Assembly: GCA_015060905.1 (NCBI GenBank)
Contig: SUXQ01000005.1
Span: 11,670-75,669 of the forward strand
Length of the DNA: 64,000 nt
Source: Bacteroidales bacterium
Lineage (GTDB): Bacteria; Bacteroidota; Bacteroidia; Bacteroidales; Bacteroidaceae
Direction of reading: 5' to 3'
Positions within the stretch are counted from its first letter, which is position 1. Each line of letters starts with the position of its first letter. Under the pieces are notes generated by a model. That model had not been told where the DNA came from and searched no databases. It saw only the letters and a list, made by a program, of their open reading frames with translations. Below are positions 49,840-60,825 of the stretch, in pieces. Made by a program: the position numbers and the translations under genes.

Positions 49840-49858
49840 ATAAAAAGCTATATTGCTA

Positions 49859-49893
49859 CCGAGGGAAAGTTTTTAATTTTCCCTCGGTTTTTT
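49859..49893 (+). terminator. Terminator after rmlB
   Basis: CCGAGGGAAA (49859-49868) pairs with TTTCCCTCGG (49878-49887), followed by a run of six T. It separates the precursor genes from the next group of the locus. Confidence 0.85.
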
Positions 49894-50090: not shown

Positions 50091-51908
50091 ATGCAAGCAA
50101 TAATTTTAGCAGCAGGCATGGGACGACGCCTTAGGGAATTTACTAAAGAAAATACCAAATGTATGGTTCCCGTAAATGGTACCCGAATGATAGATAGAAT
50201 GCTGTCACAATTGACAAAATTGAATCTTAGCCGCATAGTCATTGTCGTTGGTTACGAAGGCCTGAAGCTGATAGATTACATTGACGGCCGTTACACTGAT
50301 AAAATAAAAATCGAATATGTAAATAATGCAATATATTATAAAACAAATAATATATACTCTTTGGGATTGGCCAAGCAGCAGTTGCAGGAAGATGACACAT
50401 TATTGCTTGAATCGGACCTTGTATTTGATGACAAAATGCTTGAACTTATTGTAAATAACCCCTACCCCAACCTTGCTCTTGTGGCAAAATATGAAAGTTG
50501 GATGGATGGTACCATGGTGTCTATTGATGAGGAAAATAATATTGTAAATTTTATTACAAAAGATGCGTTTCGCTACGATGAAACACATAAATATTACAAG
50601 ACAGTGAATATTTATAAATTTTCAAAAGAGTTCAGCAAGACAAAATATGTACCCTTTCTTGACGCTTATTCGCGTGCCGTAGGAAATAATGAGTATTACG
50701 AGAATGTTCTTCGCATAATCACTTTTTTGAACAACAAAGAGCTGAAGGCTCTCCCTGTCGCCGATAAAAAATGGTACGAAATTGATGATAAACAGGACCT
50801 TGATATTGCCGAAGCTCTCTTTGCCGAGGAGAAAGATATTCTTCGTAAATATTACGGTCGCTACGGTGGTTATTGGCGTTTCCCGGGAATGCTGGATTTC
50901 TGCTATCTTGTAAACCCATATTTTCGCAGTTCTAAAATAATTGACGAAATGCAGGCTAATTTCCACACTCTCGTTGCCGAATATCCTTCGGGGATGAAAG
51001 TTAATACGTTGCTTGCGAGCAAATGTTGGGGCATTAAAGAATATTATATTGTTCCGGGCAATGGGGCTGCCGAGCTTATAAAACATTTGATGGATATTTT
51101 GCCCGGTACCGTGGGGCTTGTTCGCCCCACTTTCGAGGAGTACCCTAATCGTTGCAATAAAGAGAATTTGGTTACATTTATTCCCGGAAATAATGAATTT
51201 CGTTACACGGCGCAGGATTTAATGGATTTTTTTGGCAGGCATCCTGTCGATAATATTTTGCTTATTAATCCTGACAATCCTTCGGGAAACTTTGTACCCA
51301 TTGAGGATATATGCGTGCTTGCCGCTTGGTGCGAGAAGCGTGGGACGCGTCTTATTGTAGATGAAAGTTTCGTGGATTTCAGTGTCGATTGTGAAAATAA
51401 CAGTTTGCTGCACGATAATATATTGGAATCTTATCCGCATATGTTGGTAATTAAGTCCATTAGTAAAAGCTACGGTGTTCCGGGCATTCGTCTGGGGATT
51501 CTTTGCTCGGCAGACGTGGAAATTATTTCAAAGATAAAGAAGATGGCAAGCATATGGAATATTAACTCTTTTTGTGAGTTTTTTATGCAGATTTATACAA
51601 AGTATGAGAAAGACTACAAGCGTGCTTGCGAGAGGTTTATTGATGCTCGCAACGAGTTTGAAAAGAAGTTACGACAGATAAGTTTTCTTCGTGTCATTCC
51701 CTCGCAGGCAAACTATTTTCTTGTAGAGGTGCTCGAACCTTACACTGCGAACGGCCTTGTACTTAGAATGTTGAAAGAGTTTAATATTCTTATGCGCGAT
51801 TGCTCGGGTAAAGAGGGCTTTGATGGGAAACAGTATATGCGCATCGCTGTGCGCGATACTAATGATAATGATAAACTTATTGTTGCTCTTAAAAAGCTGG
51901 AAGAATGA
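50091..51908 (+). CDS. Fusion of sugar/choline-type nucleotidyltransferase and CobD/HisC-like PLP enzyme
   Basis: A 605-residue two-domain protein. Residues 1-235 are a LicC/RmlA-like nucleotidyltransferase (LAAGMGRRL, then TKENTKCMVPV with Lys23). Residues 245-605 are a fold-type-I PLP enzyme with NPDNPSG near 393, IVDESFVDF and the PLP Lys459 in SISKSYGVPGIRLG, which is closer to CobD-type threonine-phosphate decarboxylases than to class V aminotransferases. The layout resembles PntC (2-aminoethylphosphonate activation), but no PepM or Ppd is here. I infer that it makes an amino-alcohol phosphate and activates it as a CDP derivative. It overlaps the next gene by 4 bases. Confidence 0.82.
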   Translation: MQAIILAAGMGRRLREFTKENTKCMVPVNGTRMIDRMLSQLTKLNLSRIVIVVGYEGLKLIDYIDGRYTDKIKIEYVNNAIYYKTNNIYSLGLAKQQLQEDDTLLLESDLVFDDKMLELIVNNPYPNLALVAKYESWMDGTMVSIDEENNIVNFITKDAFRYDETHKYYKTVNIYKFSKEFSKTKYVPFLDAYSRAVGNNEYYENVLRIITFLNNKELKALPVADKKWYEIDDKQDLDIAEALFAEEKDILRKYYGRYGGYWRFPGMLDFCYLVNPYFRSSKIIDEMQANFHTLVAEYPSGMKVNTLLASKCWGIKEYYIVPGNGAAELIKHLMDILPGTVGLVRPTFEEYPNRCNKENLVTFIPGNNEFRYTAQDLMDFFGRHPVDNILLINPDNPSGNFVPIEDICVLAAWCEKRGTRLIVDESFVDFSVDCENNSLLHDNILESYPHMLVIKSISKSYGVPGIRLGILCSADVEIISKIKKMASIWNINSFCEFFMQIYTKYEKDYKRACERFIDARNEFEKKLRQISFLRVIPSQANYFLVEVLEPYTANGLVLRMLKEFNILMRDCSGKEGFDGKQYMRIAVRDTNDNDKLIVALKKLEE

Positions 51909-52924
51909 CAACCATTTGTATATGCGGAGGAGGCTCTTTGGGGCATGTTGTAGCCGGTTATCTGGGAGCAAAGGAAAATGTAAAGGTTAATATTCTTACT
52001 CGTAAGCCCGATGCGTGGCGCAGCAGTATCGAAATTTTTACTCCTGAAAATAGGACTGTTTTTTCTCATCTGAACATTGTTTCGCAAAATGCCGAGGAGG
52101 TTGTTGCCGATGCTGATATTGTAATTTTGTGCCTTCCCGGCTATGCTATTAAAGATGAATTGTTTAAAATAAGGCCATTTGTCAAACGCGGGGCTTTTGT
52201 GGGTACGGTATTTTCTTCTACCGGATTCTTTTTCGAAGCTTTGAATATTTTTGATGAATCGGTTCATTTGTGGGGCTTTCAGCGTGTGCCTTTTATCGCC
52301 CGCACGCGAGAGTATGGAAGGTCGGCGAGTTTGTTGGGTTATAAGGCTGCGCACAGTATTGCAATAGAGAATTGCGATAATAAGGAAAAATTCAGGCTGT
52401 TGATTGAGGCTCTTTTCGACCGCCCTGTAAGGTTGCTGAATAATCATTATGAGGCGAGTTTTACGAATAGCAATCCTATTTTACACCCTGCACGTTTGTA
52501 TTCTTTGTTCTGCGATTGGAATGAAAATGTGTATTACGACCATCAGTTTCTCTTTTACGAGGAGTGGAACAATTCTGCATCGGATTATTTAATTTCTTTG
52601 GATAGGGAATTGTTTGCGGTATTGGAGAAACTACCTGTGGCAAAAGGGTTTCTTGTGCCTATTTTGGAGTATTATGAGGCATTTGATGCTGAAAGTTTGA
52701 CTAAAAAGATAAATTCAATAGATGGGTTTAAAGGTATAAAGGCACCTATGATTCACAATGGCAAGGGCTGGCAGCCCGACCTGAGAAGCAGATATTTTCA
52801 AGAGGACTTTATGTATGGCTTACGTTATATTTATGAAACGGCTCATAAAATAGGTGTATATGTACCCACTGTGGATAAAATATTTACTTGGGGAATAAAT
52901 ATGTCAAAGAGGGTCGATAAATAA
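51905..52924 (+). CDS. Octopine/nopaline (opine) dehydrogenase-like protein
   Basis: A 339-residue protein with an NAD(P) fold at the start (CGGGSLGHVVAGYL, 7-20) and the opine-dehydrogenase domain at the end. NPILHPARLY with His194 is the counterpart of the catalytic His region of that family. Such enzymes join an amine and a 2-keto acid such as pyruvate by reductive amination. Its start overlaps the fusion gene by four bases, so they probably act in the same pathway. Substrate unknown; see the related finding for a proposed role. Confidence 0.82.
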   Translation: MTTICICGGGSLGHVVAGYLGAKENVKVNILTRKPDAWRSSIEIFTPENRTVFSHLNIVSQNAEEVVADADIVILCLPGYAIKDELFKIRPFVKRGAFVGTVFSSTGFFFEALNIFDESVHLWGFQRVPFIARTREYGRSASLLGYKAAHSIAIENCDNKEKFRLLIEALFDRPVRLLNNHYEASFTNSNPILHPARLYSLFCDWNENVYYDHQFLFYEEWNNSASDYLISLDRELFAVLEKLPVAKGFLVPILEYYEAFDAESLTKKINSIDGFKGIKAPMIHNGKGWQPDLRSRYFQEDFMYGLRYIYETAHKIGVYVPTVDKIFTWGINMSKRVDK

Positions 52925-52929
52925 TTTTA

Positions 52930-54399
52930 ATGTTTAAACAGTTTATGTCATCCTCGCTGAAGCAACAGACAATTTCGGGGGTTTTATGGTCGGTGATACA
53001 AAAGTTCGGAACGATGGGTGTCGCATTTGTTTCGAACTTTGTGCTTGCTCGTTTGTTGTCCCCTGATGATTATGGGTGTATAGGTATATTGGCTATCTTT
53101 ATTATTGTGGCTAATACATTTGTGGTTGGTGGCTTTGCCGGAGCTCTTGTCCAGAAAAAAGAGCCGACACACGAGGATTATTCGACGGTTTTTTATTGGA
53201 ATATGATTGTTGCTGTTTTATTGTATGTGGCATTGTATTTTTCGGCAGGGTGTGTTGCTCGTTTCTATAAGATTCCTTTGTTGCAGCCTGTATTACGGGT
53301 TCAGGGAATTGTTCTTATTATAAATGCATTAAGTGTCGTTCAGTTGAACAAACTGCGTAAAGAGCTGAAATTCAAACGCATGTCTATAGTGCAGCTTATT
53401 GCGGCTGTGCTATCTGTGGTTGTAGCTGTTGCTATGGCTTATTGGGGTTATGGAGTTTGGTCTTTGGTGGTTCAACAACTTGTTGTTTCGCTTGTTACTG
53501 CTGTTCTTTTGTGGCATGTAAGTTCATGGCGACCAACATTATGCTTTTCGTCAAAATCTTTTAAGGAGTTGTTTGCTTATGGGGGTTTTTTGTTGTTCTC
53601 GGATTTATTGAATAGTGTTTGTGAGAATATTCAAGGATTGATAATCGGACGAAGATATTCTGTTGCTGACATGGGGTTTTATTCTCAAGCGCGTAAAATG
53701 GAGGAAATTCCAACAATTACTATTTCTCATGTGGTGGCGACAGTTACTTTTCCGGTGTTTGCCGAGTTGCAAAATGATAAGGAACGTTTATATGGGGCTG
53801 TACGAAGGAGTTTGAGATTGATGAATTTTGTAAATTTTCCGTTGATGATTTTGTTGATGGTTGTTGCCGAGCCGTTATTCGTTGTTCTTTTTTCGGAGAA
53901 ATGGTTGGAGTCTGTTCCTTATTTTAGGATTTTATGTGTGGCGGGGCTTGTTAATTGTTTGCAAAGTGTTAATTATCAGGTAACGGCGGCGGTTGGGCGC
54001 AGCAGAGTTTTGTTTCAATGGAATATTGTTAAAAGGGTTGTAGGATTGATTTTGATATTTGTTGGAATGTTGTGGGGCGTGGAGGGTATTCTTTGGGCTG
54101 TGGTCGCAGGTTTTTATTTTACATTCGTGGTAAATGCTGTTGTTGCCTCTTCTTCTACCGGATATTCGCTTTTTCGGCAGGTGAAGGATTTTGTTCCTTT
54201 CTTGATTTTGTCGGTTGTTGCTGCTGTACTTTCGTGGTTGGTGTTGTATGTGTGTGATTTTTCAATTTTATTTATGTTGTTGTTACCGACGGTTGTTTAT
54301 GTTGGGGGTTATCTGTTTTTTGCTTGGACTTTTAAATTGCCCGAACTTGATGAATGTGTAAAAATAATAAGGCCTTATATTAATAGAAAAAACAAATGA
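52930..54399 (+). CDS. Wzx-like polysaccharide flippase (MOP superfamily)
   Basis: Flips the lipid-linked repeat unit across the inner membrane. The 489-residue product has about 12-14 membrane segments. The start QQTISGVLWSVIQKFGTMGVAFVSNFVLARLLSPDDYG is typical of the lipopolysaccharide/teichuronic exporter branch, and SDLLNSVCENIQGLIIGRRYSVADMGFYSQARK is the internal repeat. It is 5 bases after the opine-dehydrogenase-like gene and carries very G/T-rich codons. Confidence 0.9.
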   Translation: MFKQFMSSSLKQQTISGVLWSVIQKFGTMGVAFVSNFVLARLLSPDDYGCIGILAIFIIVANTFVVGGFAGALVQKKEPTHEDYSTVFYWNMIVAVLLYVALYFSAGCVARFYKIPLLQPVLRVQGIVLIINALSVVQLNKLRKELKFKRMSIVQLIAAVLSVVVAVAMAYWGYGVWSLVVQQLVVSLVTAVLLWHVSSWRPTLCFSSKSFKELFAYGGFLLFSDLLNSVCENIQGLIIGRRYSVADMGFYSQARKMEEIPTITISHVVATVTFPVFAELQNDKERLYGAVRRSLRLMNFVNFPLMILLMVVAEPLFVVLFSEKWLESVPYFRILCVAGLVNCLQSVNYQVTAAVGRSRVLFQWNIVKRVVGLILIFVGMLWGVEGILWAVVAGFYFTFVVNAVVASSSTGYSLFRQVKDFVPFLILSVVAAVLSWLVLYVCDFSILFMLLLPTVVYVGGYLFFAWTFKLPELDECVKIIRPYINRKNK

Positions 54400-54509
54400 T
54401 TATCGTACTGAGCATTTGATTTGCACTCTTCAAAAGTTTCTTATTGTTAAAATTTCATATTTTTTTGATTTTTTCGCGAGCGAACTTGCATTTGGCTTTA
54501 ATCTTTTAA

Positions 54510-54526
54510 GTATATTAGTATACGAA
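54510..54526 (+). promoter_or_regulatory. Upstream motif shared by the two small-protein genes (copy 1)
   Basis: GTATATTAGTATACGAA lies 26 bases before the small gene at 54553. Nearly the same 17-18 bases precede the paralogous gene at 60204. TATATTAG within it is one mismatch from the -7 box TAnnTTTG. Confidence 0.45.
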
Positions 54527-54552
54527 TATTGAAAGGCCTAAATAGTGTTCTT

Positions 54553-54741
54553 ATGAAAAAGTTTATAAATGATTTTAATGGTGAGTTTGATGAGATGTCC
54601 GAAGGTGAAAAGTTGTATGCCGAAGCATTGGCTCATTTACTTGATAAAGATACAAAAGATTATGTTGATTTTGTGGAGAATGATGAGGATGTTCCGTTTA
54701 ATATTGCCGCCGACCCGGGGGCGTCTTACGGCGATGATTAA
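54553..54741 (+). CDS. Small acidic protein, paralogue of the one at 60204
   Basis: A 62-residue acidic protein starting MKKFINDFNGEF. The core MSEGEKLYAEALAHLLDKDT is likely helical, and the end is AADPGASYGDD. It is about 58% identical (35 of 60 positions by my hand alignment) to the protein at 60204. ATG 54553 was chosen because the two paralogues align from there; an in-frame TTG further upstream is unlikely. A strong terminator follows, so it is the last gene of this segment. I do not recognise the family. Confidence 0.75.
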   Translation: MKKFINDFNGEFDEMSEGEKLYAEALAHLLDKDTKDYVDFVENDEDVPFNIAADPGASYGDD

Positions 54742-54783
54742 CTTGCTTTTGATAGTCTGTTAGCAGGTATTGGTATTTACAAG

Positions 54784-54818
54784 GCAGTCCGTTACTATGA
54801 AAAATAGTAGCGGACTGC
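54784..54818 (+). terminator. Terminator after small-protein gene 1
   Basis: GCAGTCCGTTACTA (54784-54797) pairs with TAGTAGCGGACTGC (54805-54818) with one wobble pair, loop TGAAAAA, then a T-rich run. Confidence 0.82.
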
Positions 54819-54945
54819 TTTATTTTACAAACAAAGTTATTGTTTCAACTGTTATTAATCTATCATTATAAAATGTTTGTTTAATGCTTATCGCACGTCG
54901 TGCCGCTTGCAATATTTTCAGTAACAGGTTCTATTATTGTTGAAT

Positions 54946-55737
54946 ATGAGACAAATAACGGATATAAAAGAATTGCGTAATATTCAATTGAATATTTTGG
55001 ATGCTATTCATGAGTTTTGTATAAAAAATGAAATAACTTATTTTCTTTCGAGCGGGACGCTTCTTGGGGCTGTTCGTCATAAGGGTTTTATTCCGTGGGA
55101 CGATGATATTGATTTATATATGCCTCGTGACAGTTATGAGAAATTCAAAAAGCTCTTTTATAAAAATGGGAAATATGTTCTATTTTCGTCTGATACGATT
55201 GAAAATTATCCGTGGACATTTGTAAAGGTTGTCGATTCTGAGACAAAGTTGATAGAGGCTTATTATCCCGATTTTGAAATTGGTATTAATGTGGATGTGT
55301 TCCCTGTTGACTATATTCCCGAGAATAGATATAAAAGAAGGTTGATACATTGTGTGCTTTGTTTCTTGTATACTATAAGAAAAGGTAAGGTTAAAAAGAA
55401 ACTTGCCGGCTCGAACTTCAAGGGTGCATTGGGACGCATGTTGTTAAGGCTTGTGCCTGTGAGGGTTGAGACTATTGATAAATTAATTTCAAAGGTTATA
55501 AAAAGTACTTCTCATTCTGAGATTGTTATAAATTTAACAGAATCGGGACCTGAGAACATTGATTGTTTTTTTACAAAAAAAGCAATGGATGCATCTGTTG
55601 ATGTTGCTTTTGAGGATAGAGTGTATAAGACTATGGCCGGATATGATGAGTATTTGTCCGTCACTTATGGGGATTATATGCTGTTGCCTCCGGTTGAAAA
55701 AAGAATTAAACACAATGTTATTGTTTATATAAGATGA
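54946..55737 (+). CDS. LicD-family phosphotransferase
   Basis: LicD proteins transfer phosphocholine or related phospho-groups from a CDP carrier to glycans. The 263-residue product has the hallmark [20 protein letters not shown] (35-54), followed by DLYMPR. No choline genes (licA, licB) are in the window, so the donor is more likely the CDP compound made by the fusion protein at 50091 (inference). ATG 54946 was chosen over an upstream TTG. It overlaps the next gene by 4 bases. Confidence 0.88.
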
Positions 55738-56831
55738 AAAGAATTTTAATAATACAGGAGAGTTTGAATGTAGGTGGTGCCGAAACGTTGCTTACGAGTA
55801 TATTGCCCTATATTGATTCGTCGAAATATGAAATAAATTTGTTGGTGCTTCACAAGGGTGGTCCATTGAAGGGGTTATTGCCTTATAATGTGAAGGTGAA
55901 ATATTATTTTACCAATGCTCTTAAATATTATTTATGGAGAGCATTGCTCTCTGTTGGCATATTTCTGAATTATTACTCGATAAAGGATAAAGAGTTTGAT
56001 TCTATATTGTCTTTTTTAGAGGGGCCGTCGTGTGTCGTGCATTGGAATTTGCTGAAAGGTGGCAGACGCAATGTTACTTGGGTGCACACTGATTTTATGA
56101 AGAATCATTGGTCTTTTAAATATTTTTTTAACAGTAAGAATGAGGCTATGTTTTATTCAATGATGAACAAGATTGTGTTTGTCTCGCAGGCTGCCAAAAG
56201 TAACTTTAGAAAGGTTTACAGTGTTGATGACTCTGTGACAGAGGTGCTTACAAATGCTGTTGATAAAAATTCCATTGTAAAAAAGTCTAACTTGACAATA
56301 CTGAACAAAGGAAAATTTACAGTATGCAACGTGGGACGTCTCGATGTTGCAAAAAGACAGGAGCGCATTATTAATGTAGCAAGAAAAATTCTGGATAAAG
56401 GATACGATTTTGATTTTTGGATTGTAGGCTCGGGCAAGGAAGAGGCGAAACTAAAATCTTTGATAAAAAAGAATCGTGTGGAAAATAACGTATTTCTTCG
56501 AGGCTATCAGTCGAACCCCTATCCATATATAAAATACTCTGATGTTTTTATGCTGACCTCTGATTATGAGGGTTATCCGATGGTTCTTTGCGAAGCATTA
56601 TGCTTGGGAAAGCCTATTATTTCGACAAAGGTGACAGGGGCCGAGGAGATATTGGCTGATGGCGTTGGGGTACTGTGCGACAAGGACGAAGGGGTGCTTG
56701 CCGATGCTTTAATAGAATTATATGAAAATAATGATATTTTTTCAAGGATAAGTAAAAATGCGTTTATTGCTTCAAGAAAATTCTCTTTCGAAGCATATGT
56801 GGACAGGTTTATGGAGATTTTGTTAAAATGA
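55734..56831 (+). CDS. Glycosyltransferase family 4 (first)
   Basis: Adds a sugar to the lipid-linked repeat unit on the cytoplasmic side. The 365-residue GT-B protein starts with [16 protein letters not shown] and has [19 protein letters not shown] (about 198-216), [24 protein letters not shown] and E-A-L-C-L-G-K-P-I, the GT4 donor-binding block. The sugar is not predictable. Overlaps of 4 bases on both sides show tight coupling. Confidence 0.9.
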
Positions 56832-57889
56832 TATATATAGTATATTTATTATATTCGTTTTTCATATTCAAGTTTGTAGATGCACGCAATAGACTCTCTT
56901 TTTTTATGGGTGCTGCTCTTGTGTCTGTTCCTTGGATTGTGATTATAGGTGGTCAATATAATGTTGGTGCCGATTACTTTCCCTACCTCTATTTTTTCAA
57001 CAATCCGACGACTGACGGTCGCTTTGAACCGATATTTGCATTTACTTCTGTTTTTTTGTATGATATTGGGGTTATCGGGCAATTTCAATTTTTCTTTTTT
57101 GCTTTTATAAATGCGCTGTGCTTTTTTGTTGCAGTGAGAAAATTGGAGATTTCTCGGGTGATGCTTTTTTTCTTTCTTTTCGTTACTGTTTCTACGTTGT
57201 TTAACAACCAGATGAACGGCATTAGGCAATGCGTTGCTACTTTTATTGTTTTTTTGGCATTTGTGGAATTTTACGATTCGAAAATTATAGCTGTTCTTCT
57301 TATTATTTGGGCAGCGGGCTTCCATTATTCGGCATTAGTGTGTTTACCATTTTTCTTTTTTAAAGAGATTGTGTTGTTTGCTACTAAAAGGCCGCGTCTG
57401 TTGTTGCTATTGACGTTGATTGTAACGTTGTTACCGTTAGGCGAAGTAGCCAATCGCTATATTTTTGCTTATTTACCCGACTTTATTAGGGAAGAAACTG
57501 CGTATAGTGCAATGTACGAAGGTAATGATTATGTTAATGAGCAGGTTGGATTGCAGTTTAAGCTGTCAAAATTATTGTTGTTGCCAATATACTACCTTTC
57601 GCTGGAGATTTTGGATAGGGATTATCTGAGTGATAAAGAGCGACTCTTTTTCCGATTCGGGATATTGGCATTTTCTTTACGTTGCATGCTGTTGATGAAT
57701 AACCTTGTAGGGCGTTTTTCGTATTATTTTTGGTTACCTTCTATTCTCCCTATATACTATTATATCAAATATTTGCTGGATAATAAATTGCAGCTTAAGG
57801 CTGTTGCGTGTCTGGCATATTCGTCCATAATTTATTTTATAAAAGTGATTATGGCTGTCAATGAGTATAAATACGAGTTTTTTGTTTAA
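56828..57889 (+). CDS. EpsG/Wzy-like polysaccharide polymerase
   Basis: A 353-residue inner-membrane protein with about 10 predicted membrane segments. GGQYNVGADYFPYLYFFNNP near 37-56 and NNQMNGIRQCVATFIVFLAF near 120-140 match the EpsG family, which polymerises repeat units in Wzy-type systems. Its position between glycosyltransferases fits. No other polymerase candidate is present in the locus. Confidence 0.85.
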   Translation: MIYIVYLLYSFFIFKFVDARNRLSFFMGAALVSVPWIVIIGGQYNVGADYFPYLYFFNNPTTDGRFEPIFAFTSVFLYDIGVIGQFQFFFFAFINALCFFVAVRKLEISRVMLFFFLFVTVSTLFNNQMNGIRQCVATFIVFLAFVEFYDSKIIAVLLIIWAAGFHYSALVCLPFFFFKEIVLFATKRPRLLLLLTLIVTLLPLGEVANRYIFAYLPDFIREETAYSAMYEGNDYVNEQVGLQFKLSKLLLLPIYYLSLEILDRDYLSDKERLFFRFGILAFSLRCMLLMNNLVGRFSYYFWLPSILPIYYYIKYLLDNKLQLKAVACLAYSSIIYFIKVIMAVNEYKYEFFV

Positions 57890-57899
57890 TTTTTTTATT

Positions 57900-58874
57900 A
57901 TGTTGGTTAGTTTTATTGTTCCTGTCTATAATGTTGAGAGTTATATTCATCAGTGTGTCGAGTCGATAGTGAAACAAACGTACAAAAATATAGAAATAAT
58001 ATTGGTCGATGATGGTTCGCCCGACAATTCGCCTGAAATTTGTGATAAATTGGCAGTGAAAGATTCTCGAATAAAAGTCTTACATAAACTGAACGGCGGC
58101 CTTTCCGATGCACGTAATGCAGGCTTGAAAATTGCAACAGGTGAATATATTGTATTTATCGATGGCGACGATTTTTGGGTCGATGAAAAGCAATTAGCGG
58201 CATTAATGGTTGTTGTAAAAGAAAATGCCGACTGTGATTTTATTGGTTTTAATTGTTCCTATTATTATTCTCAGAGCGATACGTACAAGCCTTGGGTCAA
58301 ATATTGCGTCGATAATATTGAAGATAAAAACAAAATTATACAAAATCTAATATCATCGGGAACATTTCCGATGAGCGCGTGTTTAAAGATTATCAGACGC
58401 AACTTTCTGGTAAATAATAATCTAACATTCAAGGTCGGCCAACTTTCTGAGGACATTCCTTGGTTTATTAATTTATTGGACAGAGCGAAAAAATGCAAGT
58501 TTATCAATCAATATATTTATGCGTATCGTCAGAATGTGGCTGGTTCAATATCCGGAAGTTTCCCCGTAAAGCATTTCGATGATATTTTAAGTATAATAAA
58601 AAATGAAATACAGGCTATCGATTCATATAGTTTCAATGCTGATACAAAAAAAGCCATTTGCTCTTTTTTGGCGTATGAATTATGTATCCTGTTGTCAAGG
58701 ATTTACAGGCTCGATAAAAAAGTACGAAAAAAGAAGCGACAGGAACTGTTGCCTTATAAGTGGTTGCTTGATTATACTCATAATCCAAAAGTCAGGAAAG
58801 TGGCTGCATTGAACAGAATATTGGGTTTCCGCCTTACTGAATATTTTTTGAAAATATATGATCGTGGAAAGTAA
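57900..58874 (+). CDS. Glycosyltransferase family 2
   Basis: A 324-residue GT-A enzyme starting MLVSFIVPVYNVESYIHQ. It has EIILVDDGSPDNSPEICD (about 35-52) and the metal-binding DGDD motif near 90, then a C-terminal half typical of GT2. I chose ATG 57900 because the family begins directly with this strand; ATG 57861 would overlap the polymerase gene by 29 bases. The sugar is unknown. Confidence 0.9.
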   Translation: MLVSFIVPVYNVESYIHQCVESIVKQTYKNIEIILVDDGSPDNSPEICDKLAVKDSRIKVLHKLNGGLSDARNAGLKIATGEYIVFIDGDDFWVDEKQLAALMVVVKENADCDFIGFNCSYYYSQSDTYKPWVKYCVDNIEDKNKIIQNLISSGTFPMSACLKIIRRNFLVNNNLTFKVGQLSEDIPWFINLLDRAKKCKFINQYIYAYRQNVAGSISGSFPVKHFDDILSIIKNEIQAIDSYSFNADTKKAICSFLAYELCILLSRIYRLDKKVRKKKRQELLPYKWLLDYTHNPKVRKVAALNRILGFRLTEYFLKIYDRGK

Positions 58875-58973
58875 TCCCGTACTTTAGCTTGCCTGTCTGT
58901 AAAATCTGTATTCAAAAGTGTAAATATTGATGACTGTTTTTAGATGTTGATTTTTTATTAATTTATACTTTTT

Positions 58974-60098
58974 ATGAAGATTCTTTTTTGTGACAATGCA
59001 TTAACTTCACTGTTAAATTTCAGAAGTGATGTTATTTCCTATTTTTTGGAGTCGGGGTGCGAGGTTGTATTGGTTGCTCCCAAGATAGAAAAAAACAGAC
59101 AGATGGAGAAAATTGTCCCTGCCGGTTGCAAAGTTTATACAATAGAAATGGAACCTGCGAGTGTCAATCCTTTAAAGGATATTGCATATTTTGGCAGATT
59201 GCTGAAAATTTATCGTCGCGAATCGCCGGATATTGTGTTTCATTATACGATTAAGCCCAATATCTATGGAACTTTTGCAGCTCGTTTGTGTCGCTTTAAG
59301 ACTGTGGCAATGGTTGCAGGGTTGGGATATGTTTTTACGGGTAACAGTTTGTTGAACAAGATTAGTTGCCTTTTGTATAAGTCGATGCTATTGCTCTCAC
59401 ATAAAGTAATATCCTTGAACAGACGAAATTACAAACTGTTGCTTGATAGAAAATTTGCAAAGAAAAAGCAGATGATTCTTTTTAATGGTGGCGAAGGTGT
59501 GAACCTTGAACAGTATTCCTATAAGAAAAGCAGGTTCGATTCTGTAACTTTTTTGATGGTGGCGCGCATTCTTTATGATAAAGGATATAATGAATATGTC
59601 GAGGCTGCCAGAATTGTAAAAAACAAATATCCTGATACAAAATTCAAATTATTGGGCCCATTGGACGTTGTTTCCCCTATGGGCGTTCCGGAAGAGGTTG
59701 TCAATAAGGATGTTGCAAATGGGCTCATTGAGTATATGGGAATAACCAATAATGTTCAAGCTATCATGGAACATCCGAATGTTGTTTCTGTACTGCCGTC
59801 CTATCACGAGGGGCTGTCGCGCTCTTTGATGGAGGCGTGCGCAATGGGTAAGCCTATAATTACAACCAATATACCCGGGTGCCGTGAAACAGTGGATAAT
59901 GAGGTTAATGGTTTTTTGGTTGCCGTGAAAAAGGCTGATTCTTTGGCCGAGGCTATGATTAGATTTATAGAGCTTCCTAAGGAGAAAAAACTTGCTATGT
60001 CCAAGGCTAGTCACAAAAAGGCATTAAAAGAGTTTGATGTTAATAATGTATTAATTCAATATAGGGATATTGTCGATGAGCTATTAGAAAAAAGATGA
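58974..60098 (+). CDS. Glycosyltransferase family 4 (second)
   Basis: A 374-residue GT-B protein. It has FHYTIKPNIYGTFAARLCRF and MVAGLGYVFTGNSLL (about 82-101 and 105-120), a pattern seen in GalNAc or fucosamine transferases of O-antigen loci, and VSVLPSYHEGLSRSLMEACAMGKPII for the donor. The sugar assignment is uncertain. The 99 bases upstream hold no recognised signal. Confidence 0.9.
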   Translation: MKILFCDNALTSLLNFRSDVISYFLESGCEVVLVAPKIEKNRQMEKIVPAGCKVYTIEMEPASVNPLKDIAYFGRLLKIYRRESPDIVFHYTIKPNIYGTFAARLCRFKTVAMVAGLGYVFTGNSLLNKISCLLYKSMLLLSHKVISLNRRNYKLLLDRKFAKKKQMILFNGGEGVNLEQYSYKKSRFDSVTFLMVARILYDKGYNEYVEAARIVKNKYPDTKFKLLGPLDVVSPMGVPEEVVNKDVANGLIEYMGITNNVQAIMEHPNVVSVLPSYHEGLSRSLMEACAMGKPIITTNIPGCRETVDNEVNGFLVAVKKADSLAEAMIRFIELPKEKKLAMSKASHKKALKEFDVNNVLIQYRDIVDELLEKR

Positions 60099-60203: not shown

Positions 60204-60386
60204 ATGGACGATTTTTTGAATGATGTTGATGGAAATTTAAGCAAAATGTCAGAAGGCGAAAAATTGTATGCTGAATCTTTGGCTCATTTGCTCGATAGGG
60301 ATACTGTTGATTATATTGAGTTTTTGGATGATAATGAGGCTGAGTTTGCTGTTGCAGCCGAGCCTTGTGCTATTTATGGTGATTGA
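60204..60386 (+). CDS. Small acidic protein, paralogue of the one at 54553
   Basis: A 60-residue acidic protein starting MDDFLNDVDGNL, with core MSEGEKLYAESLAHLLDRDT and ending AAEPCAIYGD. The block from MSEGEKLYAE to AHLLD is almost identical to the paralogue at 54553, while both ends diverge, except for a shared final Y-G-D. It contains a single Cys near the C-terminus where the paralogue has Gly. It precedes the WbuC gene by 43 bases. Function unknown. Confidence 0.75.
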   Translation: MDDFLNDVDGNLSKMSEGEKLYAESLAHLLDRDTVDYIEFLDDNEAEFAVAAEPCAIYGD

Positions 60387-60429
60387 ATGGATTTTATTTG
60401 GGAAAGGTACTTTATATTGTTGTTTAAGA

Positions 60430-60825
60430 ATGAAAGTAGATAAAAATGTGTTAGACGAATTAACTGCAAAGGCAAAGGCCAGCGAGCGGTTGAGAATGAA
60501 TTTTGACTTGCGTACGTCGCTGAACGATACTTCGCAGCGCATGCTTAATGCTCTTGAGCCGGGGACGGTTGTTCCTGTTCATCGTCATTGTACGACGGCC
60601 GAGACTGTAATAATTGTACGCGGAAGGGTTAAAGAGTTTCTTTACGATGAGCGTGGTAATCTTGCCGAAGAAATTCTTATGGAGGTTGGCGGCGATTGTC
60701 CGGTACTGCAGATTCCTGCCGGACAGTGGCACACGATAGAGTCTTTGGAGACGGGCACTGTGATTTTCGAGGCAAAGGATGGTGCATTTGCCCCTTTGAG
60801 AGAGGAGGACATTTTTAAAAGATAA
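60430..60825 (+). CDS. WbuC-family cupin metalloprotein
   Basis: A 131-residue single-domain cupin. The metal-binding pattern is VPVHRHCTTAETVIIVRGRV (about 46-65) with LQIPAGQWHTIESLE later; His, Glu and His ligands are visible. WbuC-type proteins occur in O-antigen and capsule loci, usually at the end, but their reaction is not established. ATG 60430 was chosen because the family normally starts with this helix. It is the last gene of the locus, ahead of a strong terminator. Confidence 0.85.
   Translation: MKVDKNVLDELTAKAKASERLRMNFDLRTSLNDTSQRMLNALEPGTVVPVHRHCTTAETVIIVRGRVKEFLYDERGNLAEEILMEVGGDCPVLQIPAGQWHTIESLETGTVIFEAKDGAFAPLREEDIFKR

What the first reader, a model, noticed from the sequence alone, without database searches (positions are those of the whole stretch)
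50091..55737. Possible pathway for an opine-type amino-alcohol phosphate decoration on the polysaccharide
Seen: a nucleotidyltransferase fused to a CobD/HisC-like PLP enzyme (50091-51908) overlaps by 4 bases an opine-dehydrogenase-like gene (51905-52924), and a LicD transferase (54946-55737) lies in the same locus. Known: CobD-like enzymes decarboxylate or transaminate phospho-amino compounds, opine dehydrogenases add a 2-keto acid to an amine, and LicD moves phospho-groups from CDP carriers to glycans. From memory, N-(1-carboxyethyl)-ethanolamine phosphate exists in some Proteus O-antigens. Inference: a phosphoserine- or DHAP-derived amino-alcohol phosphate is activated with CTP, N-carboxyalkylated and attached by LicD. 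I know of no described pathway of this make-up.
Basis: partly seen in the sequence, partly recalled or inferred. Interest (0 to 1): 0.75.

Follow-up and report, generated by a model that had tools for sequence, protein, structure and literature searches.

The report
Capsule tag pathway with opine step
Three genes in a bacterial capsule locus probably build a small phosphate tag, modify its amine the way opine enzymes do, and attach it to the surface sugar coat; I found no description of such a pathway in the papers I could search.

Summary
In detail: a nucleotidyltransferase/CobD-like PLP fusion, an octopine-dehydrogenase-family gene overlapping it by 4 bases, and a LicD gene share one capsule locus. 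The association is far above chance. In 80 named relatives a reductase lies within 5 kb of the fusion in 66 and LicD in 60. Across 295 order-mates LicD is in 10 of 11 fusion genomes against 27 of 284 others. Some relatives fuse the domains outright.

The dehydrogenase slot can be filled by an unrelated family, ornithine cyclodeaminase/mu-crystallin (OCD), known for imine-reduction chemistry. And of six genomes found with that OCD clade but no fusion, four carry 2-aminoethylphosphonate (AEP) genes; two are unresolved. The shared substrate is most simply an aminoethyl group.

Best reading: phosphoserine is decarboxylated to ethanolamine phosphate, activated to CDP-ethanolamine, N-carboxyalkylated, and moved by LicD onto the polysaccharide. 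No activity was tested; substrates, keto acid, stereochemistry, order of steps and acceptor are inferred.

The parts
50091..51908 (+). Bifunctional enzyme: N-terminal LicC/PntC-type nucleotidyltransferase (about residues 1-250), C-terminal CobD-like PLP enzyme (about 260-605); proposed phosphoserine decarboxylase plus ethanolamine-phosphate cytidylyltransferase
   Evidence: Pfam and PDB matches; K459 (PLP lysine by recalled family motif), E107 and E204 invariant in 41 sequences
51905..52924 (+). Opine-dehydrogenase family reductase, proposed to N-carboxyalkylate the aminoethyl phosphate or its CDP form
   Evidence: PF02317; octopine dehydrogenase 3c7a at E 3e-49 by profile; H194, R296, D301 invariant in 24 sequences and aligned with octopine dehydrogenase positions 212 (H), 324 (R), 329 (D)
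52930..54399 (+). Wzx-type flippase of the capsule locus, 5 bases after the dehydrogenase
   Evidence: PF13440 E 4e-97
54946..55737 (+). LicD phosphotransferase, proposed to move the CDP-activated group to the glycan; the only LicD found in this (87.5% complete) genome
   Evidence: PF04991 E 1.4e-42; one LicD match in G000; lies in a 21-row clade (SH-aLRT 99) of fusion-near LicDs that holds 0 of 20 control LicDs
49858..49888 (+). Terminator-like hairpin upstream of the fusion; suggests the module starts its own transcript
   Evidence: 14-pair stem with T tail; consensus match only (9 such sites found, 5.1 expected in shuffles)
55734..60098 (+). Glycosyltransferases and a Wzy-like polymerase of the capsule locus, giving the likely acceptor context
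   Evidence: Glycos_transf_1 (two genes) and Glycos_transf_2 matches; the polymerase label of 56828-57889 is by reading only

Best explanation
A tailoring module for the capsule. The CobD-like domain decarboxylates L-phosphoserine to ethanolamine phosphate; the fused LicC/PntC-type domain turns it into CDP-ethanolamine with CTP; the opine-dehydrogenase-type enzyme condenses the free amine with a 2-keto acid (probably pyruvate) and reduces the imine with NAD(P)H, giving an N-(1-carboxyalkyl)ethanolamine phosphate head group; LicD transfers this phospho-group to a sugar of the polysaccharide. Shown here: genes, families, catalytic residues, conserved linkage, domain fusions, reductase exchange, and presence of the alternative reductase with AEP phosphonate genes where the fusion is missing. 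Inferred: each substrate, the keto acid, the order (reduction after CTP activation is favoured because the nucleotidyltransferase keeps the acidic residues that face a free amine in PntC), and the acceptor.
For: Linkage: 80 named loci, reductase within 5 kb in 66 (within 60 bp in 63), LicD in 60; of 59 with at least 3 kb on both sides, reductase 50, LicD 43, both 39. Unselected order sample of 295 genomes: fusion in 11, PF02317 in 6 of 11 vs 16 of 284 (p 3e-5), LicD in 10 of 11 vs 27 of 284 (p 3e-9); the dehydrogenase branch of the window is in 6 genomes, all with the fusion, two of them with it on another contig. Fusions: nucleotidyltransferase-PLP-dehydrogenase in L087 and L088 (Pfam); dehydrogenase-LicD in L069, L094, L098, L100 (own profiles and sequence). 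Slot exchange: OCD-type reductase in 12 of 80 named loci, in 11 of them with no PF02317-type gene near and in one (L067) beside it; at least 10 OCD label changes forced by starred branches on a quick fusion tree. Substrate: 16 of 236 family genomes have the OCD clade; 13 have the fusion, and the 3 without it carry AEP genes; G229 of the order sample likewise. In G229 and G419 the reductase is directly next to an AEP gene. On the OCD tree the four AEP-genome rows need at least 3 label changes. No PEP mutase over cut-off in 11 of 11 order-sample fusion genomes. Pocket: window E107 aligns with the PntC glutamate that faces the AEP amine (aspartate in LicC), and E204 with LicC D192. PLP domain: best solved relative 6oux, labelled threonine phosphate decarboxylase-like, 196 bits; then 3ftb, labelled histidinol-phosphate aminotransferase, 161; CobD 1lc5 134; HisC 8bj1 115.
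Against: No activity data. The PLP domain fails the CobD and HisC cut-offs, and its second-best solved relative is labelled HisC, so decarboxylation is a family inference. 14 of 68 loci with full flanks lack either reductase within 5 kb and 20 of 68 lack LicD. Among the closest relatives of the window's fusion, L026 and L028 show no LicD in the fetched stretch, and in L027 and L039 it is 8.5 and 6.5 kb away. G042 has no LicD at E 1e-10; G101, G286 and G151 have neither reductase. In the PntC alignment E196 falls one column beside E204. The PntC-transaminase fusion was seen full length in only 1 of 295 order genomes (G229), so its direct linkage to the reductase rests on one case, plus one PEP mutase neighbour (G419). 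In G387 and G519 the reductase and the AEP cluster are apart. In some relatives the module lies next to housekeeping genes (by eye), so a lipid acceptor is possible there.
Confidence: 0.58

Rival explanations
1. The PLP domain is an aminotransferase on dihydroxyacetone phosphate; the activated, N-carboxyalkylated compound is serinol phosphate, as the C. jejuni Cj1437 precedent would suggest.
For: Cj1437 makes serinol phosphate for a capsule (passage of PMC12409886); the domain is also HisC-like, and 3ftb, labelled HisC, is its second-best solved relative.
Against: The best match is CobD-type in both NCBIfam and the PDB; the OCD reductase is shared with AEP genomes, and AEP has no hydroxymethyl branch.
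Confidence: 0.12
2. The PLP domain decarboxylates phosphothreonine, giving 1-amino-2-propanol phosphate as in cobamide synthesis.
For: TIGR01140 CobD is the best NCBIfam match.
Against: Below the CobD cut-off; nearest solved structure is the divergent CobD-like 6oux; reductase shared with AEP genomes; phosphothreonine needs its own kinase (recalled), which I did not search for.
Confidence: 0.08
3. CDP-ethanolamine is made, but the reductase works on a different amine (an amino sugar or a free amino acid), so the tag is plain ethanolamine phosphate beside an independent modification.
For: Some loci have fusion and LicD with no reductase (8 of 68 with full flanks), so the core seems to work without it.
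Against: In-frame fusions to the PLP protein and to LicD and the presence of the OCD reductase with AEP genes tie the reductase to the aminoethyl compound itself.
Confidence: 0.13
4. The acceptor is a lipid (glycolipid or sphingolipid), not the polysaccharide.
For: The LicD here has a below-cut-off match to a diacylglycerol cholinephosphotransferase (NF045866, 88.5 of 225 bits); several relatives lie beside housekeeping genes such as one reading as methionyl-tRNA synthetase (by eye).
Against: In the window the module is inside a capsule-type locus with flippase and glycosyltransferases.
Confidence: 0.09

Closest known systems
Pnt pathway (PntC and PntC-AEP transaminase fusion, e.g. Treponema denticola Tde1415, PDB 6pd1/6pd2)
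   Same: N-terminal LicC-like cytidylyltransferase fused to a PLP enzyme that makes the amine; glutamate at the amine-facing position (E104 type); LicD nearby
   Different: Here the PLP domain matches Aminotran_1_2 and is CobD-like, not class V; no PEP mutase over cut-off in the 11 order-sample fusion genomes; product expected to be a phosphate ester, not a phosphonate; a reductase follows
Lic pathway (LicC, LicD) for phosphocholine
   Same: Nucleotide activation then LicD transfer
   Different: Glutamates where LicC has aspartates; amine proposed to be made de novo from an amino acid phosphate rather than taken from choline
Campylobacter jejuni Cj1436 (serine phosphate decarboxylase)
   Same: Makes ethanolamine phosphate for a capsule
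   Different: There the compound is amidated to glucuronate and then dephosphorylated; no CTP step in the passages read; sequence not compared here
Octopine dehydrogenase (Pecten maximus, 3c7a)
   Same: Profile match over nearly the whole length, E 3e-49, with His, Arg and Asp aligned
   Different: Condenses free arginine with pyruvate; here the amine is predicted to be an aminoethyl phosphate or its CDP form
Ornithine cyclodeaminase/mu-crystallin family (SbnB, pyrroline-carboxylate reductase)
   Same: Fills the same slot; PF02423, related to imine-reducing enzymes
   Different: The one member scanned with NCBIfam (from L125) falls below every cut-off, so a separate branch

Membership tests
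LicC/PntC-type cytidylyltransferase | MobA-like/NTP transferase domain with LAAGxGxRL motif (motif recalled) | tested here: met
   Pfam over cut-off; PntC and LicC are the best solved relatives
LicC/PntC-type cytidylyltransferase | Acidic pair facing the substrate amine (PntC E104/E196, LicC D105/D192) | tested here: met
   E107 and E204 invariant in 41 rows. E107 aligns with PntC E104; E204 aligns with LicC chain position 212, which is D192 if, as I inferred from both aspartates fitting, chain and residue numbers differ by 20; it is one column off PntC E196
LicC/PntC-type cytidylyltransferase | CTP specificity and product CDP-ethanolamine | not testable with these tools
   needs enzyme assay
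Pnt phosphonate pathway | PEP mutase in the genome | tested here: not met
   0 of 11 fusion genomes over the TIGR02320 cut-off, window genome included (87.5% complete; another, G194, 68%); elsewhere G348 has both the fusion and an AEP cluster
CobD (TIGR01140 equivalog) | Score over curated cut-off | tested here: not met
   170.8 of 290.55 bits
HisC (TIGR01141 equivalog) | Score over curated cut-off | tested here: not met
   129.7 of 276.55 bits
Octopine/opine dehydrogenase PF02317 | Alpha-helical domain over cut-off, with catalytic His-Asp and the Arg sensor | tested here: met
   passages of PMC2924402 name a His-Asp dyad, His212 and Arg324; that the Asp is 329 is recalled
Octopine/opine dehydrogenase PF02317 | Reductive condensation of an amine with a 2-keto acid | not testable with these tools
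   needs enzyme assay
LicD PF04991 | Family match over cut-off; [12 protein letters not shown] motif (recalled) | tested here: met
   146.8 of 22.6 bits; motif read in the translation

The most novel reading that the evidence does not exclude
A cell-surface chemistry spread through Bacteroidales (fusion in 11 of 295 sampled order genomes, also in two records titled Fibrobacter): a de novo CDP-ethanolamine route (phosphoserine decarboxylase fused to cytidylyltransferase) feeding nucleotide-level opine formation, in which two unrelated reductase families, and for one of them two head-group branches (phosphate and phosphonate), are exchanged like cassettes, so that strains vary the keto acid or stereochemistry of a zwitterionic surface tag.
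Probability: 0.45. Interest if true: 0.85.

Novelty: new variant of a known kind. Interest (0 to 1): 0.76.

Why it matters
It predicts a specific, testable structure on the surface of many Bacteroidales, links opine dehydrogenases to glycan tailoring, gives a bacterial route to CDP-ethanolamine that does not pass through phosphatidylethanolamine, and suggests that AEP surface phosphonates may also be N-carboxyalkylated. Zwitterionic and phosphate tags on capsules bear on host recognition and phage binding (general knowledge), so a swappable tag would be of wide interest.

Tried and rejected
AEP/phosphonate as the product in the window: unlikely for lack of PEP mutase. Chance neighbours in a capsule locus: rejected. 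Phosphocholine as substrate: less likely from the glutamate pair. LicD subtype as a marker of reductase presence: the labels mix on the LicD tree, so dropped, although four short LicDs without reductase do group.

Papers. Ten searches were made, over open-licence PMC texts only. In the listings I saw no title on such a pathway; of the papers listed there I opened only PMC6697681 and PMC9630907. From PMC6697681 I saw the start of the abstract and passages; from PMC12409886, PMC4585668, PMC2924402, PMC9630907 and PMC6461909 passages. PMC4966446 is not held, so that 6oux is the Sulfurospirillum SMUL_1544 protein, and that this enzyme uses serine phosphate, rest on recall. A structure prediction of the fusion was not obtained: the machine was busy. 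My notebook entry calling the partner of another dehydrogenase set radical-SAM-like was by eye; Pfam gave no match.

Limits of the counts. Neighbour searches used profiles built from these loci, so the dehydrogenase branch of the window is defined by likeness to fusion-neighbour enzymes, though two members are unlinked to the fusion. Rows dropped: L025 (fusion in two pieces) from the fusion tree; four LicDs farther than 5 kb from the control tree. The fusion tree and the control LicD tree used the quick method without bootstrap. The 20 control LicDs were chosen by me out of 55 LicD rows; two come from fusion genomes (G151, G293) but not from beside the fusion. How common AEP clusters are in the window's family was not measured, so '3 of 3' without fusion has no base rate. 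G239 (65% complete) and G304 (reductase with an in-frame stop at a contig end) have the OCD clade and no fusion; I did not search them for AEP genes. In G387 no PEP mutase was seen in the stretch read, and in G316 only a PntC-like gene was seen. PntC-like and dehydrogenase-LicD assignments rest on my own profiles, not on Pfam.
Full report
OBSERVATION. The fusion at 50091-51908 has a LicC/PntC-like nucleotidyltransferase domain and a CobD-like PLP domain; the dehydrogenase at 51905-52924 overlaps it by four bases and is followed after five bases by a flippase; LicD at 54946-55737 is two kilobases further on. The surrounding locus reads as a capsule locus, with export, nucleotide-sugar and rhamnose genes before it and glycosyltransferases after it (names upstream of 49839 are by reading, not by a family search). 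A terminator-like hairpin lies before the fusion.

IS THE LINKAGE REAL? The fusion occurs in 11 of 295 genomes of the order at E 1e-60. An octopine-type dehydrogenase lies within 5 kb in 55, an OCD/mu-crystallin reductase in 12, either in 66 (one locus, L067, has both), and LicD in 60; in 63 the reductase is within 60 bp. Of the 59 with at least 3 kb on both sides, 50 have a reductase, 43 LicD and 39 both. On the 295 unselected genomes, LicD is in 10 of 11 fusion genomes against 27 of 284 (Fisher p 3e-9) and PF02317 in 6 of 11 against 16 of 284 (p 3e-5). In those 16 other genomes the dehydrogenase scores E 1e-25 to 1e-60 against the fusion-neighbour profile, whereas the branch of the window (E below 1e-120) is found in six genomes, all with the fusion (p 5e-10), two of them with the genes on different contigs. 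That last figure is partly circular, because the branch is defined with fusion-neighbour sequences.

DOMAIN FUSIONS. In L087 and L088 one protein of 945 or 944 aa holds nucleotidyltransferase, aminotransferase-fold and octopine dehydrogenase domains. In L069, L094 and L098 the dehydrogenase is fused to LicD, and in L100 to LicD and a further stretch (own profiles and sequence). Each pair of neighbouring steps is thus joined in a single chain somewhere.

A SECOND REDUCTASE IN THE SAME SLOT. Where the dehydrogenase is missing, the gene after the fusion is in a number of loci PF02423, ornithine cyclodeaminase/mu-crystallin (three tested), related to SbnB-type and pyrroline-carboxylate reductases. 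Of 80 named loci 11 have it in place of the dehydrogenase and one has both; 14 have neither within 5 kb. On the fusion tree the OCD label changes at least 10 times by starred branches, and close pairs differ in the reductase (for example L059 and L071). No genome of the 11 in the order sample has both clades: 6 have one, 2 the other, 3 neither. Two unrelated families in one slot point to shared chemistry; the one both families are known for is reduction of an imine next to a carboxylate, that is N-carboxyalkylation of an amine (family knowledge, and inference).

WHICH AMINE? In G229, which lacks the CobD-type fusion, the same OCD clade directly follows a PEP mutase, a phosphonopyruvate decarboxylase and a PntC-AEP transaminase fusion (PEP mutase 390 of 319.55 bits, decarboxylase 524.7 of 312.5, transaminase half PhnW-AepZ 380.3 of 360.8). 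In the window's family 16 of 236 genomes carry the OCD clade. Ten have the fusion directly beside it, 13 have the fusion somewhere, and the remaining three (G387, G419, G519) have phosphonopyruvate decarboxylase, PntC-like, AEP transaminase and LicD genes together (decarboxylases and transaminases over cut-off). In G419 the reductase is next to a PEP mutase; in G519 the PEP mutase is in the AEP cluster, far from the reductase; in G387 I saw no PEP mutase in the stretch read. Two more genomes with the OCD clade and no fusion, G239 and G304, are unresolved. On the OCD tree the four AEP-genome reductases need at least three label changes among the others. AEP and ethanolamine phosphate share the 2-aminoethyl group, so ethanolamine phosphate is the simplest product of the fusion. 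PEP mutase is not over cut-off in any of the 11 order-sample fusion genomes, so AEP itself is an unlikely product there; G348 of the family sample has both fusion and AEP genes. The full-length PntC-transaminase fusion was seen in one of 295 order genomes.

ENZYME RESIDUES. PntC contacts the AEP amine with E104 and E196, where LicC has D105 and D192. E104 aligns with window E107; window E204 aligns with LicC D192 (numbering offset inferred), one column off PntC E196; both are invariant in 41 fusions. The PLP domain is nearest to 6oux, then 3ftb (labelled HisC), then CobD 1lc5; I recall, but could not check, that 6oux is the S. multivorans protein SMUL_1544, for which a paper passage proposes ethanolamine phosphate production. 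The dehydrogenase keeps H194, R296 and D301, aligned with positions 212, 324 and 329 of octopine dehydrogenase; paper passages name a His-Asp dyad, His212 and the Arg324 NADH sensor.

LICD. One LicD match was found in the window genome. It falls in a 21-row clade (SH-aLRT 99) made only of LicDs near fusions, with 0 of 20 control LicDs inside. The LicDs of four AEP clusters lie elsewhere, in a group with four controls.

WHAT SPEAKS AGAINST. Twenty of 68 loci with full flanks have no LicD within 5 kb and 14 have no reductase. The nearest relatives of the window's fusion have LicD farther away or not in the fetched stretch. Nothing here shows activity, keto acid, order or acceptor. In several relatives the module sits beside housekeeping genes (by eye), where a lipid or another glycan could be the acceptor.

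COMPARISON AND NOVELTY. Nucleotide activation of aminoethyl or choline phosphorus compounds with LicD nearby is known (Lic, Pnt). New here are the CobD-type fusion as a de novo source, the opine step, its two interchangeable families, and the sharing of one of them with AEP genomes. The expected residue is known chemically: PMC9630907 abbreviates N-[(R)-1-carboxyethyl]ethanolamine phosphate in a legend-like passage on O-polysaccharides. The listings of searches showed no paper on such a pathway; they cover open-licence PMC texts only. I rate it a new variant of a known kind.

Noticed in passing
L108:3692-7862, L111:5127-9291 (also L106, L107, L109, L112): Other Bacteroidales octopine-type dehydrogenases of a different branch recur beside a 560-630 aa protein (cut by the contig end in L109) with no Pfam match in the two tested; in L108 and L111 (Pfam), and by eye in L106 and L112, an ATP-grasp protein is also near.
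   Followed up: partly
L150:3777-5557: An unfused aminotransferase-fold gene followed by a separate LicC-like nucleotidyltransferase, in the reverse order of the fusion, in a genome that also has the fusion.
   Followed up: partly
L014/L015 (G266): The fusion is in two pieces with an in-frame stop; whether gene split, decay or assembly error is unknown.
   Followed up: no
window 54400-54945: About 550 bases between flippase and LicD in which I noticed only a 62-aa reading frame without a Pfam match (54553-54741).
   Followed up: partly
window 60268-60825: Small protein at the end of the capsule locus matching DUF6016 and weakly Cupin_2.
   Followed up: no
L100:11838-14603: Dehydrogenase-LicD fusion continues into a further stretch of about 320 aa that reads like a glycosyltransferase (by eye).
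   Followed up: no
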